Assembly (NCBI GenBank): GCA_002298885.1
Contig: DBMK01000098.1
Coordinates: 1 to 6,394 of the forward strand
Direction of reading: 5' to 3'
Origin: Anaerolineaceae bacterium UBA700
GTDB lineage: Bacteria > Chloroflexota > Anaerolineae > Anaerolineales > Anaerolineaceae
DNA: 6,394 nt
Shown: one piece after another, positions 405-6,257 of the stretch
How the letters are laid out: the number at the start of each line of letters is the position of its first letter
How positions within the stretch are numbered: the stretch's first letter is position 1
Notes under the pieces: generated by a model
Seen by the model: the letters and a program-made list of their open reading frames with translations, nothing else
Databases searched by the model: none
What the model was told of the DNA's origin: nothing
Translations under genes and position numbers: made by a program

Positions 405-1604
405 ATGACTAAACTGCGCTCCTCCACTCTCCTCCCCCTCCTCCTCTTCCTCCTCGCCTGGGTCCTGCTGGCGCTCGGCATCCACAGCGTGATGCAGGGC
501 AACACGATGGGCTCGGATTTCTACCTGTTCTATCACGCCGGGCAGAATGCCTTTTTCGACCGGGTCAACCCGTACAGTGACGAGCAGGCGCGCCTGAACC
601 AGTTGGCCATCTTTAAACACCTGGCCGCGCCGGGGGAGGACGAGCTGGGCTTCGCCTACCCGCCCTACGCGCTGCTGCCGGTGTGGCCCACCCTGGGGCT
701 GGATTTCGCCTGGGCCCAGGCCGTGTGGGCTGCGTTTCTGCTGCTGGGCCTGGTCACCACGCTCGCCCTGGCCTTCCCCGGCGCGCCGGCCTGGATCGGT
801 GCCTCGACGATCTTCCTCTATCCCTTCACCTTTGGGCTGATCCTGGGGAATTTCGCCATCCTGATCGGGGCCATCCTGCTGCTGACCTACAGCCGCCTCA
901 CCCGCACCGCCGAATCCAGCCGGCCGGCGCAGGCGGCGTTGGGCGTGCTGCTGGCCTGGGCTACGGTCAAGCCGCAATTCGCCTGGCTGTTCGTGCTCTT
1001 CTTTCTGTTGGCCGGGCTGCGCCGGCGCTGGTGGACCTTTCTGGTGGCCTTCGCCGGCGGACTGGCATTTTTTGCCGCCGTTTCCTTCGCCATCGTGCCC
1101 GGCTGGCCGGGGCTGTGGCTGGACCGCCTTTCGAAATATGCCGTCTACACCCAGGCCTGGCCGACCGCCGCCATCATCCTCCGGGATTTCCTGCCCCTCG
1201 ACCTCCTCACACCGCTGACCCTGGTGTTGGGGGCAGCCTTGTTGGCCGCCAGCGCCTGGCTGTTCCTGCGCTGGTGGAGGGGACACCTCGACCCGCTGCT
1301 TCTGCTGGCCTGGTGCGGTCTGGTCGTGTACGCTCTGCACCCGTGGGGCAAATCCTACGAGCAGATCGACTACCTGCTGCCTATTGTTGTTTGGGCTTGC
1401 CAGCTCCAAAAGGTCCGCTCGCCCGCCCGCCTGTTCTTCTGGCTGGGCAGCCTGGTCCTCTCCTGGGCCGCCTTTTATGTTTCCAGCCAGCCCGGCGCCC
1501 CGCCCGGCTCCTCCGAATGGCCCTTGCTCTTCAACGCCGTCTGGGTGGCGTGGATGTTCCTCCGCCAGCGCCGGCCCGCTGCGCAAGCCGCCGCGGCGAT
1601 TTAA
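405..1604 (+). CDS. GT87-like (DUF2029) membrane glycosyltransferase
   Basis: This is a polytopic inner-membrane protein of 399 aa, close to the usual length of GT87-family GT-C glycosyltransferases. Those enzymes (PimE is the best known) move a sugar from a polyprenyl-phosphate donor onto a glycan or lipid on the outer face of the membrane. Helix 1 spans about residues 9-29. The first outer loop carries the family pattern: Asp38 in GSDFY is the candidate catalytic base, followed by NPYS at 55-58. Next come FAYPP at 83-87, LGN at 147-149 where many relatives have GQ, and VKPQ at 188-191 before a further helix and an Arg/Trp-rich turn (206-210). A late loop has HPWGKSYEQID at 312-322. The ATG at 405 precedes helix 1, and the next Met (residue 30) would remove it. 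There is no Shine-Dalgarno; the upstream DNA is the heptamer tract. Donor and acceptor cannot be read from the sequence. Confidence 0.75.
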   Translation: MTKLRSSTLLPLLLFLLAWVLLALGIHSVMQGNTMGSDFYLFYHAGQNAFFDRVNPYSDEQARLNQLAIFKHLAAPGEDELGFAYPPYALLPVWPTLGLDFAWAQAVWAAFLLLGLVTTLALAFPGAPAWIGASTIFLYPFTFGLILGNFAILIGAILLLTYSRLTRTAESSRPAQAALGVLLAWATVKPQFAWLFVLFFLLAGLRRRWWTFLVAFAGGLAFFAAVSFAIVPGWPGLWLDRLSKYAVYTQAWPTAAIILRDFLPLDLLTPLTLVLGAALLAASAWLFLRWWRGHLDPLLLLAWCGLVVYALHPWGKSYEQIDYLLPIVVWACQLQKVRSPARLFFWLGSLVLSWAAFYVSSQPGAPPGSSEWPLLFNAVWVAWMFLRQRRPAAQAAAAI

Positions 1605-1611
1605 AGAATGG

Positions 1612-1660
1612 GTGTTATTTGATGAATGCGGCGCTTCGCACCGCATTCATCAAATAACAC
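1612..1660. terminator. 20-bp perfect hairpin between convergent genes
   Basis: Bases 1612-1631 pair perfectly with 1641-1660. The 9-base loop (1632-1640) can add two more G-C pairs around TTC after one mismatch. The hairpin starts 8 bp after the glycosyltransferase stop and ends 37 bp from the stop of the minus-strand membrane gene, the expected place for a shared bidirectional terminator. Neither side has a proper U-run: the plus transcript continues AUAGAUAAAAUU and the minus transcript CAUUCUUUAAA. It may therefore act as a 3'-end barrier or a Rho-assisted stop, or be a palindromic repeat element. Confidence 0.55.
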
Positions 1661-1669
1661 ATAGATAAA

Positions 1670-1698
1670 ATTCGTGACAATTCGTGTAATTAGCGGAT
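1670..1698. repeat. Dispersed direct repeat, copy 1
   Basis: ATTCGT, four variable bases (GACA), then ATTCGTGTAATTAGCGGAT, followed shortly by a T-run. The same arrangement recurs at 3521-3549. The copy ends on the first base of the reverse-strand stop codon of the membrane gene, so the edge of the repeat contributes to that stop. The unit contains its own short 10-bp-spaced duplication of ATTCGT. Confidence 0.75.
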
Positions 1699-3173
1699 CA
1701 GCTTTTTCTCATCTTAAACACGAGGAAAACCAGCACCCCCAAACTGATCCCTGCTCCGCCGATTATTGCCGCAACATACGCCGGGTCCGGGTGGTTGGCC
1801 GGGACTAACGGCGCCAGCGGCGCGCCGGGAGCAAAATAGGCGCCGAGCTGGTCGACCTTCCACAGCAGGCGGTGCTGCTCCAGGTCGTGCGCCAACAGCA
1901 GGAATCCCGCTAGAACGGCAGCCTGTGCGGCGCGCCCAAGCGCGCCACGCTCCAGCGAGCGGTCCAGCCAGCGCTGCAGCCCAATTGCCGCCAGCACGCT
2001 CAGGAAGGCCAGCACCAGGCCCAGGAAGCGTGAGGAGACGCGCTCCCCGGTGAGCATGGGAACGTGCAGGGCGAAGACAAGCTGGTAAAAGCGGCCGATG
2101 CTCAGTAGGGCCACCACGCCCAGGGAACCGAACAAGGCCAGACGGCGCTGGGCGCCTTTTTCCCAGGCCAGCCAGGCATAAATTCCAAATGTTAGTATGA
2201 AGGCCAACCCGGCCACGCCGATGTAGTGATCGAACTCTGGCCAGATCACCTGCGGAGTGAGAATCGAAATCGGTTGGTTGACGGCCTGTGGCCCCTTGAG
2301 GCTCACCAGCCCTTCCAGCAGGTCGCCCAGGCTGGCAAAACCGGAATGGAAAGAGTCCTGCAGGCTGCCGGCTTCCAGTGCGGACGGGACAATACGGAAG
2401 GCGCACAAGCCCAGGCCGAAAATGAGGGCCAGGTAGACCTGGCGGAAGTGTGCCCAGTAAAAAACTCCCAGGCAGGCCAGCAGCAGGATGACCCACACCA
2501 CCAGGTGGAACGAGCCCTGCAGGAAGGCCAGAGCCATCCAGACAGCCACCCAGCCGATCCAGCGCCAGCCGGCCGGCTCCTCGAAAAGGCGCAGCACCAG
2601 CAGCGCCAGGTAGGGCAGCAGGAAATATCCGCCCCACGAAAAATGGCCCAGCGAATAATGGTCGACGATGTGCCCGTTGAAGTTGAACAGGCAGTACATC
2701 ACGCCGAATGCCGCCAGCGAAAGGCGGTAGCGCCTGCGCAGCAGCAGCAGGCCAACGAACCCCAGGCTGTAAAGGAACAGCACGTCCGCCAATACGAAGG
2801 ACCCGGGTTCCATAACCCCCAGCAGGAGCACCTGCGGTGAGAGCACCACGTCCGGGATCGCCAGGAAGCGGTCGGTGATGTTCTTCAGGCCGGTCGCCTG
2901 GTCCACCTGCAGCGGCAGCACGCCCTGCCGGATGGCGCTCTGGGTGAAACCCAGCCGCGGCCCGGTGATCTCGTACCAGTCGAGCTGGTCAAAAGGGATG
3001 CGCCCCCAATTCAAAAAATCTCCCCATTGGAAGATGCCGCTGGCGAAAAGAACACATAACAGCAGCAGTTCCGCCAGCCGCCCGAGCCTGGCGGTGGGCT
3101 GGCGGAACAGCGCCGCCCAAATCTCCCCCGCGCTGCGCTGGAGGCGGGCTGAAATTGTGTTGATGTTGTCCAC
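1698..3173 (-). CDS. Polytopic membrane protein, YfhO/GT-C-like
   Basis: This 491-aa protein has many hydrophobic segments, roughly ten or more, including about 33-50, 126-145, 151-166 and 182-195 and a last one near 467-486. It ends in a basic KMRKS tail. After helix 1 an outer loop holds two acidic residues (Asp62, Asp65, in PFDQLDWYE), then QGVLPL at 83-88. The order resembles the first loop of YfhO-type and other GT-C glycosyltransferases, where an acidic residue and a G-x-LPLW-like stretch are common. A His-rich patch follows (GHIVDHYSLGHFSW, 167-180). It is much shorter than typical YfhO proteins (800 aa or more), so the family call is tentative; function may be lipid-linked sugar transfer. 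The start is a GTG at 3173-3171 without a Shine-Dalgarno sequence; an extended -10 box lies nine bases upstream. The gene converges with the GT87-like gene and is flanked by two copies of a direct repeat. Confidence 0.7.
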   Translation of the reverse strand: MDNINTISARLQRSAGEIWAALFRQPTARLGRLAELLLLCVLFASGIFQWGDFLNWGRIPFDQLDWYEITGPRLGFTQSAIRQGVLPLQVDQATGLKNITDRFLAIPDVVLSPQVLLLGVMEPGSFVLADVLFLYSLGFVGLLLLRRRYRLSLAAFGVMYCLFNFNGHIVDHYSLGHFSWGGYFLLPYLALLVLRLFEEPAGWRWIGWVAVWMALAFLQGSFHLVVWVILLLACLGVFYWAHFRQVYLALIFGLGLCAFRIVPSALEAGSLQDSFHSGFASLGDLLEGLVSLKGPQAVNQPISILTPQVIWPEFDHYIGVAGLAFILTFGIYAWLAWEKGAQRRLALFGSLGVVALLSIGRFYQLVFALHVPMLTGERVSSRFLGLVLAFLSVLAAIGLQRWLDRSLERGALGRAAQAAVLAGFLLLAHDLEQHRLLWKVDQLGAYFAPGAPLAPLVPANHPDPAYVAAIIGGAGISLGVLVFLVFKMRKS

Positions 3174-3191: not shown

Positions 3192-3214
3192 TGGGGTTTC
3201 AGAATAATATTCTA

Positions 3215-3473
3215 GTTACGACTTATAAGCTTTTATAAATTAATCGGGTAATTCAAAAAACGGATGCCAAAACCTACCTCACCCCCCAGCCCCCTCTCCA
3301 TGAAATGGAGAGGGGGAGAAACCGATTTTCCCACCAGGGGAGCACGTCTCACAGCTACTTTCACTGCGCGCTCCCCTCTCCATTCCATGGAGAGTGGCCG
3401 GGGGTGAGGTCAGGTTTTGAATCCCAATTTTCAAGGTTACCCGATTTACTTGGAAAAATTCATAAGTCATTAC
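3215..3473. mobile_element. MITE-like element with long imperfect inverted repeats
   Basis: The two halves are reverse complements around position 3344. The outermost 34 bases (3215-3248 against 3440-3473) align without gaps at 25 of 34. A perfect 10-bp block AATCGGGTAA (3242-3251) answers TTACCCGATT (3437-3446). Further in, CAAAACCT, then ACCTCACCCCC and CTCTCCATG, occur in both arms with small indels. Each arm also holds its own hairpin: a 12-bp stem at 3290-3301/3305-3316 with loop GAA, and an 8-bp stem at 3376-3383/3387-3394 with loop TCC. About 50 unpaired bases (3319-3370) lie between the arms. There is no transposase, and no target-site duplication is obvious, so mobility is inferred. 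A non-mobile clover-like palindromic repeat is the alternative. Confidence 0.6.
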
Positions 3474-3520
3474 TACGTTTCCAGATTCATAATTCATGGA
3501 TATATTCTTTCTTAATGACC

Positions 3521-3549
3521 ATTCGTCCCCATTCGTGTAATTAGCGGAT
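3521..3549. repeat. Dispersed direct repeat, copy 2
   Basis: ATTCGT, CCCC, then ATTCGTGTAATTAGCGGAT, followed by a run of six T. It matches copy 1 (1670-1698) at 26 of 29 bases; all differences fall in the four-base linker, and the last 19 bases are identical. The two copies lie in the same orientation 1,851 bp apart and bracket the minus-strand membrane gene plus the inverted-repeat element. The end of this copy overlaps the -35 box of the kinase promoter. Confidence 0.75.
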
Positions 3550-3578
3550 TGATTTTTTCCTTACCAACCGTCTATAAT
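3549..3578 (+). promoter_or_regulatory. Sigma-70-type promoter of the kinase operon
   Basis: A perfect TATAAT at 3573-3578 stands 18 bp after TTGATT at 3549-3554, which matches the -35 consensus in four of six positions. Initiation would fall near A3585, giving a leader of about 45 nt before the ATG at 3630. This rules out the in-frame ATG at 3549 as the start, because it would lie upstream of the transcript. Confidence 0.65.
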
Positions 3579-3615: not shown

Positions 3616-3620
3616 GGAGG
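3616..3620 (+). promoter_or_regulatory. Ribosome binding site of the sugar kinase
   Basis: GGAGG at 3616-3620, nine bases before the ATG at 3630. It decides the start of the kinase gene against the longer in-frame reading from 3549. Confidence 0.75.
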
Positions 3621-3629
3621 CTTCATTTC

Positions 3630-5087
3630 ATGGCGAACGAGCGCAACCTACCCAAGGAAATCCTGCAGTTCGAATGGTTGCTTAAGAAACCCAACAGCGA
3701 CCTGACCGGGCTGGCCGGCTACTTCAACACCGGCGAGATCATCGTCACCCGCGTCCCGGCCCGCCTGGACGTGATGGGCGGCATTTCGGATTATTCCGGG
3801 GCCAACGTGTGCGAGGGCGTCCTCGGCGGAGGGATGGTCATTGCACTCCAGCCGCGCACCGACCGCACCCTGCGCATCCGCACCATGCAGGCCAAGCAGA
3901 TCGGGCTGCCGGTGGAGACGCGCATCCCGCTGGACTATTTCGAAAGCGGCAACGGGTTTGTCTCCTATGAGCAGGTGCAGGCTCTGTGCAAGAGCAACCC
4001 GCTCTCCTCCTGGGCGGCCTACATCGGCGGCAGCATCTTCACCCTGCTCAAAGAGCAATCCATCCATCTGCCGTTCGGATTCAGCCTGTTCCTGCTCAGC
4101 GGGGTGCCCATGAACGTGGGCATCGGCAGCTCGGCCGCCACCGAAATCGCCGCCCTGTACTGCCTGCAGAATTACCTCCAGATGGATATCTCCGAGACCC
4201 AGCTCGCCAAGCTGGGGCAGTTGGCCGAAAACCTGGTCGTCGGCGCGCCCTGCGGCATCATGGACCAGATCACGGTCACCAGCGGGCGCCAGGGCAAGCT
4301 GACCCACATCCTGTGCCGCCCGGGCAGCATCATGCGCGAGATCGAGATCCCGCCCGAGACAGCCTTCGTGGGCATCAATTCGATGGTCAAGCACTCGGTG
4401 GGAGGTGCCGCCTACAGCGACGTGCGCGTCGGGGCCTTCATGGGCAAGCGTATCATCAACCATGTCCGTGAGCAGCGCGGCGAAAAGCCCTTGCAGTACC
4501 TGACCGAGCTGACGCCCGATTTGTTCGAAAAGAACTACCGCGAATGCCTGCCCCAGACGATGATCGGATCGGATTTTCTGACCAAATACCAGTCCCACGA
4601 CGACCCGATCACCCGCATCCAGCCCGACGCCACCTACCGCGTTCAGGGCCCCTCCGCCCACCCGGTCTACGAGAACGACCGCGTGCTCAAGTTCATGGAT
4701 CACCTGAGCGCGGCTACCGAGAAGGGTAAGAATGAGGCTGAGCTGGTCAGTGCCGGCGAATGCATGGTCGCCTCGCACGAGAGCTACCGCGATAACTGCC
4801 ACCTGTCTGTCCCCGAGGTCGATTTCATCGTGGACGCGGTGCGTTCGCGCGGACCGGCCCGCGGCCTGTACGGCGCCAAGATCACCGGCGGCGGCTCGGG
4901 CGGGACGGTGGCCGTCTTCGGGCGCCAGGAGGCCCTCACCACCGAAATACCGGCCATCGCCCGCGAATACAAGCGCCTGACCGGCCTGGAAGCGGACATC
5001 TTCGAGGGCTCCTCCCAGGGAGCGATCGAGTTCGGCTCGTATCGCTATACGTTTGGCCCGATGGGCTGGATCCGCTCGATATGCTGA
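3630..5087 (+). CDS. GHMP sugar kinase, L-arabinokinase-like
   Basis: A cytoplasmic kinase of 485 aa that should phosphorylate a free sugar at C1 with ATP. All three GHMP motifs are present. Motif 1 is PARLDVMGGISDYSG at 43-57, where galactokinases have GRVNLIGEHTDYNGG. Motif 2 is GIGSSAA at 164-170, the phosphate-binding loop. Motif 3 is GAKITGGGSGG at 415-425. Asp212 in CGIMDQ is the expected catalytic base. Other stretches (HSVGGAAYSDVRVGAFMG at 255-272, SHDDPIT at 322-328, HPVYEN at 344-349, FEGSSQGA at 458-465) agree with my memory of the kinase half of plant L-arabinokinase (ARA1), rather than with GalK. The plant protein's N-terminal glycosyltransferase-like half is absent. The start at 3630 follows GGAGG; the 3' end overlaps the next gene by 7 bp, so the two are probably coupled in translation. 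L-arabinose is the best substrate guess; galactose or another sugar is possible. Confidence 0.85.
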   Translation: MANERNLPKEILQFEWLLKKPNSDLTGLAGYFNTGEIIVTRVPARLDVMGGISDYSGANVCEGVLGGGMVIALQPRTDRTLRIRTMQAKQIGLPVETRIPLDYFESGNGFVSYEQVQALCKSNPLSSWAAYIGGSIFTLLKEQSIHLPFGFSLFLLSGVPMNVGIGSSAATEIAALYCLQNYLQMDISETQLAKLGQLAENLVVGAPCGIMDQITVTSGRQGKLTHILCRPGSIMREIEIPPETAFVGINSMVKHSVGGAAYSDVRVGAFMGKRIINHVREQRGEKPLQYLTELTPDLFEKNYRECLPQTMIGSDFLTKYQSHDDPITRIQPDATYRVQGPSAHPVYENDRVLKFMDHLSAATEKGKNEAELVSAGECMVASHESYRDNCHLSVPEVDFIVDAVRSRGPARGLYGAKITGGGSGGTVAVFGRQEALTTEIPAIAREYKRLTGLEADIFEGSSQGAIEFGSYRYTFGPMGWIRSIC

Positions 5088-5968
5088 TCCGCAAAGCCGT
5101 CGTGCCCATCGCCGGCCTGGGGACGCGCCTCTTCCCAGCGTCGCTGGCCTGCAAAAAAGAATTGTTCCCGGTAGTCGGCCCAGACGGGGTGGCGCGGGCG
5201 CTGCTGCATTACCAGCTCATCGACCTGATGCAGGCCGGCATCCGCCAGGTGTGCATTGTGGTGCAGCCCGGCGAGGAGAAACTGGTGGTGGATTACTTCA
5301 GCGGCCCCGGCCCGGACTACCTGGCGCACCTGGAGAAATACCCGCATCTGCTCCAGGAGGCTGCTGCCATGCGTGCAGCCCTGGACTGCATCTCGTTCGC
5401 CGTGCAGGCCAGCCAGGAGGGCTACGGCCACGCAGTTTACCAGAGCAAAGCCTTCGCCGCCGGTGAGCCGGTGCTGCTGTGCCTGGGCGACCACCTCTTT
5501 CGGGGCCAGGGGAAGTCCTGCCACGCCCGGCTGATCGATGCCTATGCGCAGTGCGGCGGGCGCAGCGTCTCCGCCGTCAACCGCATCGGCCCCGAAGAGC
5601 TGTTCGGCTACGGCACCATCGGCGGCAGGCGCCTGGCGGCCGCGCCGGAGCTGATCGAGGTGCAGGGCATCGTCGAAAAGCCCTCCGTCGAGCTGGCCCG
5701 CCGCGACCTGCGCGTCGACGGCCTGGGAGGCGATGAATTCCTGGGCTGGTTCGGCATGCACGCCCTCTCGCCCGGCATTTATGACATATTGGAAGAAATG
5801 ATCGCCCACGACGAGCGGCAGAAGGGCGAGTTCCAGCTCACCTACGCCCAGGAGCTGCTGCGCCAGCGCGAGGGCTACTTTGCCCTGGAGATGGTCGAGG
5901 GCCGGCGCTTCGACTTCGGCATGCCGCGTGAATTTGCGCGCAGCATTGCGGAATTCGCCGCCGGGTAA
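5081..5968 (+). CDS. GalU-like sugar-1-phosphate nucleotidyltransferase
   Basis: This 295-aa cytoplasmic enzyme has the length and fold markers of bacterial UTP-glucose-1-phosphate uridylyltransferase. It would join a sugar-1-phosphate to a nucleotide, probably UTP, releasing pyrophosphate. The nucleotide-binding signature is AGLGTR at 11-16 with Lys26-Glu27 and Pro30. EGYGHAVY at 113-120 corresponds to the GLGHAV of GalU, and Asp137 in LGDH is a metal ligand candidate. FGYGTI is at 175-180, VEKP at 198-201, and Asp278 in FDFGMP is the second metal ligand candidate. Departures from GalU include Leu22 where GalU has the Lys of ATKA, Lys25 in place of Pro before the conserved Lys, and GDH instead of a DD pair. 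The ATG at 5081 lies inside the end of the kinase gene (ATGCTGA), so translation is probably coupled. The pairing suggests it takes the kinase's product; plain UDP-glucose synthesis is the alternative. Confidence 0.8.
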   Translation: MLIRKAVVPIAGLGTRLFPASLACKKELFPVVGPDGVARALLHYQLIDLMQAGIRQVCIVVQPGEEKLVVDYFSGPGPDYLAHLEKYPHLLQEAAAMRAALDCISFAVQASQEGYGHAVYQSKAFAAGEPVLLCLGDHLFRGQGKSCHARLIDAYAQCGGRSVSAVNRIGPEELFGYGTIGGRRLAAAPELIEVQGIVEKPSVELARRDLRVDGLGGDEFLGWFGMHALSPGIYDILEEMIAHDERQKGEFQLTYAQELLRQREGYFALEMVEGRRFDFGMPREFARSIAEFAAG

Positions 5969-5984: not shown

Positions 5985-6257
5985 TTAATGCTGTGTTTCG
6001 GGCTGTCCTTCGACCACTTTGAAGATGCAGTCGCCTTTGTACACCGGTTCCATCACTCGCAGCGCAATTTCTGTGCCCGCGCCGGCGGCGAAAATCCGGC
6101 GGTGTTCGATCTCCATCGAGCTGACCTGCTGGGTAAATTCGGTATTGCGCCCAACCACGTGAATGGTATCCCCCGGCTTCAATTCGCATTTCAGGCTCAC
6201 CACGGCCACGCTGATGCGGTTGAAATAGTGCGTAATCCTGCCGGCCAGAATTTCCAT
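5985..6257 (-). CDS. EF-Tu domain-2-like small protein, 90 aa
   Basis: The protein is a single beta-barrel like domain 2 of translation elongation factors, with no GTPase domain. Visible markers are GRITHYF at 6-12, an alternating hydrophobic strand VAVVSL at 17-22, LKPGDTIHV at 26-34, FTQQVSSMEIEH at 41-52, GTEIALRV at 60-67 and KGDCIFKV near the end. These match the pattern of short stand-alone proteins annotated as translation elongation factor-like, whose role is unknown as far as I know. I chose the ATG at 6257 because GGGAGGG (6264-6270 on the minus strand) lies six bases upstream; the longer reading from 6359 adds 34 residues that do not look like the domain. It converges with the nucleotidyltransferase gene, with 16 bp between the stops and no visible terminator. 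Confidence 0.75.
   Translation of the reverse strand: MEILAGRITHYFNRISVAVVSLKCELKPGDTIHVVGRNTEFTQQVSSMEIEHRRIFAAGAGTEIALRVMEPVYKGDCIFKVVEGQPETQH

What the first reader, a model, noticed from the sequence alone, without database searches (positions are those of the whole stretch)
3630..5968. Coupled bacterial arabinokinase-like kinase and nucleotidyltransferase: a possible plant-type sugar salvage operon
The kinase carries ARLDVMGGISDYSG, HSVGGAAYSDVRVGAFMG and FEGSSQGA, features I associate with the kinase half of plant L-arabinokinase and not with GalK. The next gene overlaps it by 7 bp and encodes a sugar-1-phosphate nucleotidyltransferase. In plants, arabinokinase and UDP-sugar pyrophosphorylase perform these two steps to recover free arabinose as UDP-arabinose. 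Most bacteria instead catabolise arabinose through isomerase and ribulokinase, so a two-gene activation route here would be notable. Motif presence is seen; substrate and pathway are inferred.
Basis: partly seen in the sequence, partly recalled or inferred. Interest (0 to 1): 0.7.

Follow-up and report, generated by a model that had tools for sequence, protein, structure and literature searches.

The report
Bacterial arabinokinase-like kinase plus uridylyltransferase pair
Two overlapping bacterial genes look like a small pathway that turns a free sugar, probably L-arabinose or galactose, into an activated UDP-sugar, much as plants do but with a different second enzyme; which sugar it uses is not known.

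Summary
Window 3630-5087 encodes a 485-aa GHMP kinase; 5081-5968 encodes a 295-aa GalU-like nucleotidyltransferase; they overlap by 7 bp. All three quoted motifs are present.

The kinase is not a galactokinase: it scores far below GalK cut-offs, carries Gly-Ile where 7 of 7 host GalK carry Glu-His, and separates from GalK in the tree (100/99). It is 35-38% identical to six plant L-arabinokinases, but lies in a bacterial sister clade and lacks their N-terminal domain.

The coupling is real: the transferase follows the kinase in 40 of 45 close loci from several phyla, and four of the five other genomes hold it elsewhere. It has the GalU fold but forms its own subfamily; relatives are fused to other GHMP kinases.

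"UDP-sugar salvage module" is well supported. "Arabinose" is only partly supported: the active site favours it, but context points at least as much to galactose (galE in one operon, galT fused or linked to ARA1-type kinases). L-arabinose isomerase co-occurs in 18 of 30 genomes, so the pair does not generally replace catabolism. New variant of a known kind.

The parts
3616..3620 (+). Shine-Dalgarno-like GGAGG before the kinase ATG
   Evidence: read directly in the sequence
3630..5087 (+). arabinokinase-like GHMP sugar kinase, 485 aa
   Evidence: Pfam GHMP N and C; best PDB sequence match 9ulx 'AbGHMP', E 4e-100; trees
3759..3800 (+). substrate loop ARLDVMGGISDYSG; Gly51-Ile52 stand where GalK has Glu-His; Arg45 and Asp54 are kept
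   Evidence: alignment columns
4263..4265 (+). codon of Asp212 of the MDQ motif, the counterpart of the GalK catalytic Asp (role recalled)
   Evidence: Asp in 76 of 76 aligned rows
5081..5087 (+). 7-bp overlap of the kinase stop and the transferase start, suggesting translational coupling (inference)
5081..5968 (+). GalU-like sugar-1-phosphate nucleotidyltransferase, 295 aa, of a distinct subfamily

Best explanation
The two genes form a UDP-sugar salvage module. The kinase uses ATP to phosphorylate the anomeric carbon of a free sugar of galactose-like shape, most likely L-arabinopyranose (galactose without its C6 group), giving sugar-1-phosphate. The overlapping GalU-like enzyme couples that to UTP, giving UDP-sugar and pyrophosphate. 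It probably has broad specificity and also makes UDP-glucose or UDP-galactose in many hosts. Shown here: family, coupling, conserved catalytic residues, changed loop at the C6 pocket. Inferred: the reaction of each enzyme, UTP as donor, and L-arabinose as first substrate. My odds: pair is a UDP-sugar salvage module about 0.75; L-arabinose as main substrate about 0.4.
For: (1) The kinase is 35-38% identical to six plant proteins (the five others named or clustered as L-arabinokinase or similar by a source, the sixth an unnamed Arabidopsis product), against 23-27% to 7 GalK of host genomes. (2) The GalK Glu-His pair is Gly-Ile in 30 of 30 rows of the window group and in 22 of 23 ARA1-type rows (Gly-Phe in one); in the third clade (13 rows) it is Gly-Asn in 11 and Gly-Ile in 2; Arg45, Asp54, Asp212 and Tyr262 are kept in 76 of 76 rows. 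By recall, that Glu contacts the C6 hydroxyl of galactose. (3) The tree separates the arabinokinase-like group from GalK with 100/99 support. (4) The transferase lies within 1.2 kb downstream of the kinase, same strand, in 40 of 45 loci with a kinase at 49% identity or more, from Chloroflexota, Verrucomicrobiota, Planctomycetota, Lentisphaerota, Kiritimatiellota, Acidobacteriota and a Fibrobacterota-labelled bin; one search returned the best 80 of 139 loci. Four of the five other genomes hold it elsewhere. (5) The transferase has the GalU fold. Its relatives in Poribacteria, KSB1 and Calditrichota include C-terminal halves of GHMP kinase-transferase fusions. (6) In 27 of 30 kinase-bearing genomes it is the best GalU-family match.
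Against: No experiment and no substrate-bound model: the kinase model is poor (mean pLDDT 60.8). Context clues that exist point to galactose: a true galE overlapping the pair in L009, galT fused or adjacent to ARA1-type relatives, a GH53 galactanase two genes upstream in L027. AraA is present in 18 of 30 genomes. The plant UDP-arabinopyranose mutase family is in only 1 of 30. The kinase is outside the plant-type clade. The loop change is shared with GalT-fused relatives, so it does not by itself exclude galactose. Two genomes with a related kinase (of L033 and L061) hold no transferase above 37% identity.
Confidence: 0.6

Rival explanations
1. It is a GalT-free galactose route: the kinase is a second-type galactokinase and the transferase makes UDP-galactose directly from galactose-1-phosphate, with GalE finishing the job.
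For: galE (422 bits, over cut-off) overlaps the pair in L009. GalT is fused to ARA1-type kinases (9 of the 120 proteins listed; one named from a Gemmataceae MAG) and linked to one in L062. GH53 lies near the kinase of L027. 14 of the 17 genomes with a true GalK have no GalT match at E 1e-10.
Against: 17 of 30 genomes already have a true GalK over cut-off. The C6-contact Glu is replaced by Gly in 53 of 53 window-group and ARA1-type rows. GalT over cut-off is as rare in 188 members of one class (28) as in the kinase-bearing set (6 of 30), Fisher p 0.43, so its absence is not specific; at least three genomes are in both sets. The GalT clue comes from the sister clade.
Confidence: 0.3
2. The substrate is another pyranose (a 6-deoxy sugar, a uronic acid or xylose) and the pair makes that UDP-sugar, possibly for cell-envelope glycans.
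For: In 12 of the 80 loci, mostly Verrucomicrobia subdivision 3, the pair lies between a glyS and an infC gene, a housekeeping place. No arabinose gene is among the recurrent neighbour clusters that I annotated; clusters 5, 8, 9, 11, 13 and 18-21 were not annotated. A bacterial-type transferase is also found with a glucuronokinase in zebrafish (PMC3938481, passages).
Against: Most of the listed plant relatives with a descriptive name are called L-arabinokinase or ARA1. Asp54, the counterpart of the GalK residue that by recall binds C3/C4 hydroxyls, is kept.
Confidence: 0.2
3. The transferase is simply the host's UDP-glucose pyrophosphorylase, and its linkage to the kinase reflects shared regulation, not a two-step path.
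For: 16 of 30 genomes show neither a strong UDPGP match (380 bits or more) nor a canonical GalU, so this enzyme may be their UDP-glucose source.
Against: Conserved order with overlapping or close genes across phyla, co-occurrence when unlinked, fusions of related transferases to other GHMP kinases. 13 of 30 genomes have a separate strong UDPGP.
Confidence: 0.15

Closest known systems
Plant L-arabinokinase ARA1 with UDP-sugar pyrophosphorylase USP (L-arabinose salvage)
   Same: Homologous kinase domain with the same GGIxDYSG loop; an anomeric kinase followed by a uridylyltransferase is the same logic.
   Different: Kinase in a sister clade without the plant N-terminal domain; the transferase is GalU-like (PF00483), not USP (PF01704 family, recalled); encoded as two overlapping bacterial genes.
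AbGHMP (PDB 9ulx, 9uly)
   Same: Best solved-structure match by sequence, about 42% identical, E 4e-100.
   Different: Groups with plant-type enzymes and not with the window clade; I found no paper on its function.
GalT-kinase fusions (P0244, from a Gemmataceae MAG, and others)
   Same: Arabinokinase-like kinase joined to an enzyme that makes a UDP-sugar from a sugar-1-phosphate.
   Different: GalT (UDP-glucose as donor, recalled) instead of a pyrophosphorylase; ARA1-type subclade.
Zebrafish glucuronokinase/putative UDP-GlcA pyrophosphorylase (PMC3938481)
   Same: GHMP sugar-1-kinase plus short bacterial-type nucleotidyltransferase.
   Different: One fused animal protein with the transferase first; kinase specific for glucuronate; transferase activity extremely low in their assays.
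Fucokinase/GDP-fucose pyrophosphorylase FKP (PMC12732313)
   Same: Kinase plus pyrophosphorylase sugar salvage.
   Different: Fused; acts on L-fucose and D-arabinose and makes GDP-fucose; different transferase family (recalled).
Bacterial GalU
   Different: Below the GalU cut-off; own subfamily, with about five inserted residues (PDG region) against the two canonical GalU aligned.

Membership tests
Plant-type L-arabinokinase (ARA1) | GHMP kinase N and C domains | tested here: met
   Pfam PF00288 and PF08544 over cut-off
Plant-type L-arabinokinase (ARA1) | GGI-DYSG loop in place of the GalK GEH-DY loop | tested here: met
   Gly51-Ile52 as in five of six plant rows, Gly-Phe in the sixth
Plant-type L-arabinokinase (ARA1) | groups with plant ARA1 apart from GalK | tested here: met
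   100/99 branch between GalK and the arabinokinase-like group; with a distant HddA-like outgroup the backbone is unresolved, but GalK stays one group without the window, 99/100
Plant-type L-arabinokinase (ARA1) | lies inside the clade of plant ARA1 and AbGHMP | tested here: not met
   the ARA1-type rows (with L062) form their own group (100/97), and the window clade with Poribacteria and Calditrichota another (99/96)
Plant-type L-arabinokinase (ARA1) | long N-terminal glycosyltransferase-like domain | tested here: not met
   485 aa, kinase only; the Arabidopsis protein has a weak Glyco_trans_1_3 match at its N-terminus, 21.7 bits, below the 25-bit cut-off
Plant-type L-arabinokinase (ARA1) | phosphorylates L-arabinose at C1 | not testable with these tools
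   needs an assay
Galactokinase (GalK) | score over a GalK equivalog cut-off | tested here: not met
   five GalK models, 104-149 bits against cut-offs of 227-509
Galactokinase (GalK) | Glu-His in the GEHTDY loop | tested here: not met
   Gly-Ile
UTP-glucose-1-phosphate uridylyltransferase (GalU) | GalU fold | tested here: met
UTP-glucose-1-phosphate uridylyltransferase (GalU) | score over the GalU cut-off | tested here: not met
   118.4 bits against 326.8
Plant UDP-sugar pyrophosphorylase (USP) | UDPGP domain PF01704 | tested here: not met
   only PF00483 found at E up to 0.01

The most novel reading that the evidence does not exclude
Bacteria of several phyla salvage free L-arabinose to UDP-L-arabinose with a homologue of the plant arabinokinase and a GalU-derived broad UDP-sugar pyrophosphorylase that is also the cell's UDP-glucose source: the plant salvage layout, built with a different second enzyme.
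Probability: 0.3. Interest if true: 0.7.

Novelty: new variant of a known kind. Interest (0 to 1): 0.5.

Why it matters
If the substrate is L-arabinose, UDP-arabinose salvage is not a plant speciality, and the plant enzyme has a deep bacterial sister family. If it is galactose, many uncultured bacteria run a GalT-free galactose route. Either way a widespread pair, whose kinase the JGI names label galactokinase or L-arabinokinase, becomes directly testable and could serve one-pot UDP-sugar synthesis, where PMC5974040 says that available kinases limit the scope (passages).

Tried and rejected

Rows dropped or chosen: for I gave 30 of the 45 close loci, all 30 with the transferase downstream; the five loci without it were searched separately, with seven more distant ones. 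The tree holds a hand-picked sample: 16 of the 45 close loci, 5 of the 120 listed kinase homologues, 21 of the 120 long proteins, and 7 GalK, among others. In one search I dropped 14 rows (long branches and near-duplicates) and 7 of 12 HddA-type loci in which my ORF filter found no frame. The GalK count of 17 includes G140, whose match is in two pieces.

Full report
What is there. Window 3630-5087 encodes a 485-residue GHMP kinase with a GGAGG site just before its ATG. 5081-5968 encodes a 295-residue nucleotidyltransferase that overlaps it by 7 bp. Domain searches find GHMP_kinases_N and _C, and NTP_transferase. The host is probably a member of Anaerolineae: the close relatives that bear an organism name are mostly Anaerolineae, Anaerolineaceae or Chloroflexota MAG proteins at 70-79% identity, with one at 79% labelled Nitrosospira. 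No genome is held for the window.

The kinase is not GalK. Against five curated galactokinase models it reaches 104-149 bits, with cut-offs of 227-509. Its best solved relative by sequence is 9ulx, called AbGHMP, at E 4e-100; a galactokinase comes next at 2e-20. No paper in the library holds the name AbGHMP or the entry codes. With a query that lets long proteins in (the kinase of L037), plant proteins named L-arabinokinase or ARA1 are found at 36-39% identity, and one unnamed product from Arabidopsis. The Arabidopsis protein against the window itself gives 35% over 478 aligned positions, 265 bits.

Active site. In the GalK loop GEHTDY the Glu and His are invariant in the 7 GalK of the host genomes. 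They are Gly and Ile in 30 of 30 rows of the window group, Gly with Ile (22) or Phe (1) in 23 ARA1-type rows, and Gly with Asn (11) or Ile (2) in the third set of 13 rows. Arg45, Asp54, Asp212 and Tyr262 are kept in 76 of 76 rows. From recall of GalK structures, the Glu contacts the C6 hydroxyl and the kept residues serve catalysis and the C3/C4 side. The change thus suits a galactose-shaped sugar without C6, which L-arabinopyranose is. This is an inference, and relatives fused to GalT share the loop.

Tree. With 76 chosen rows, the arabinokinase-like group is separated from GalK by a 100/99 branch. Inside it, the window clade (with Calditrichota, KSB1 and Poribacteria rows; 99/96) is sister to the rest (81/72): the ARA1-type group (plant ARA1, AbGHMP, GalT fusions; 100/97), a 'GGNDDYTGG' clade and one Chloroflexi row. 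With a distant HddA-type outgroup the backbone is unresolved, but GalK remains one group that excludes the window. So the kinase is arabinokinase-like but not a plant-type ARA1.

Coupling. One search returned the best 80 of 139 genome loci. Among the 45 with a kinase at 49% identity or more, the transferase lies within 1.2 kb downstream on the same strand in 40. Of the other five, the genomes of L015, L018, L031 and L042 hold it elsewhere (63, 60, 55 in part, and 70%), and that of L033 has only a 37% partial match. The loci come from Chloroflexota, Verrucomicrobiota, Planctomycetota, Lentisphaerota, Kiritimatiellota, Acidobacteriota and a bin labelled Fibrobacterota. Metagenome clusters are consistent with this: 13 kinase clusters besides the window's own have the same longest-contig length as a transferase cluster.

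Which sugar. For arabinose: relatives and active site, above. For galactose: galE (422 bits, over cut-off) overlaps the pair in L009; a GH53 galactanase lies two genes upstream in L027; galT is fused to ARA1-type kinases (9 of the 120 proteins listed) and lies in a galT-IMPase-kinase row in L062. Against either as a simple story: true GalK is present in 17 of 30 genomes, AraA in 18, GalT in 6, the plant UDP-arabinopyranose mutase family in 1. GalT over cut-off is about equally rare among 188 members of one class (28).

Literature. The plant route L-arabinose, L-arabinose-1-phosphate, UDP-L-arabinose by ARA1 and the broad USP is described in PMC12281597 (abstract and passages) and PMC5897480 (passages). 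Kinase plus promiscuous pyrophosphorylase is a known salvage layout (PMC5974040, passages). The zebrafish glucuronokinase/putative pyrophosphorylase joins a GHMP kinase to a short bacterial-type transferase, whose activity was extremely low in their assays (PMC3938481, passages). FKP is the fucose version (PMC12732313, passages).

Verdict. A real, widespread two-gene pair that most likely is a UDP-sugar salvage module: a new variant of a known kind. The arabinose assignment is plausible (about 0.4) but not established; galactose is the main rival (about 0.3).

Noticed in passing
window 405-1604 (+): Protein of glycosyltransferase family 87 (PF09594, 46.6 bits), upstream of the pair.
   Followed up: no
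window 1698-3173 (-): 491-aa protein, hydrophobic to the eye, without any Pfam or NCBIfam match at E up to 0.01.
   Followed up: no
window 1612-1660: 23-bp inverted repeat, 96% complementary, with a 3-base loop just after the GT87 gene.
   Followed up: no
window 1670-1708 and 3521-3559: 39-bp direct repeat (82%) holding ATTCGTGTAATTAGCGGAT.
   Followed up: no
window 3213-3475: Nested imperfect inverted repeats (CCCCTCTCCATGAAATGGAGAGGGG type) in the gap before the kinase, like a small mobile or palindromic repeat.
   Followed up: no
window 5985-6257 (-): 90-aa reading frame with a sub-threshold match to the peptidase U32 C-terminal domain (18.9 bits, cut-off 28.2).
   Followed up: no
L062:7425-11386: Gemmatimonadetes row galT, inositol-monophosphatase-like gene, ARA1-type kinase; the same partners occur as fusions (GalT: P0241, P0242, P0244 and others; IMPase: P0296, P0349, P0360).
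   Followed up: partly
L145, L146, L147, L148, L149 and L104: Proteins of 641-679 aa; L145 and L146 were shown by Pfam to join an N-terminal GHMP kinase to a C-terminal GalU-like transferase, and the others align with their transferase half; substrate unknown.
   Followed up: partly
L063 to L080: A third arabinokinase-like clade with MGGNDDYTGG; 11 of these 18 loci carry an RmlD-like reductase gene two places upstream and 11 a DegT-type aminotransferase gene, just upstream in the 10 that could be ordered (families from one representative each).
   Followed up: partly
L151:2165-4178: A GalU-like gene directly followed by an HddA-like GHMP kinase, another kinase-transferase pairing.
   Followed up: partly
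L006, L008, L012, L013, L016, L020, L024, L026, L029, L030, L039: In these 11 loci the pair sits between glyS plus a DUF2127 gene and infC, a housekeeping neighbourhood (families from one representative each).
   Followed up: partly
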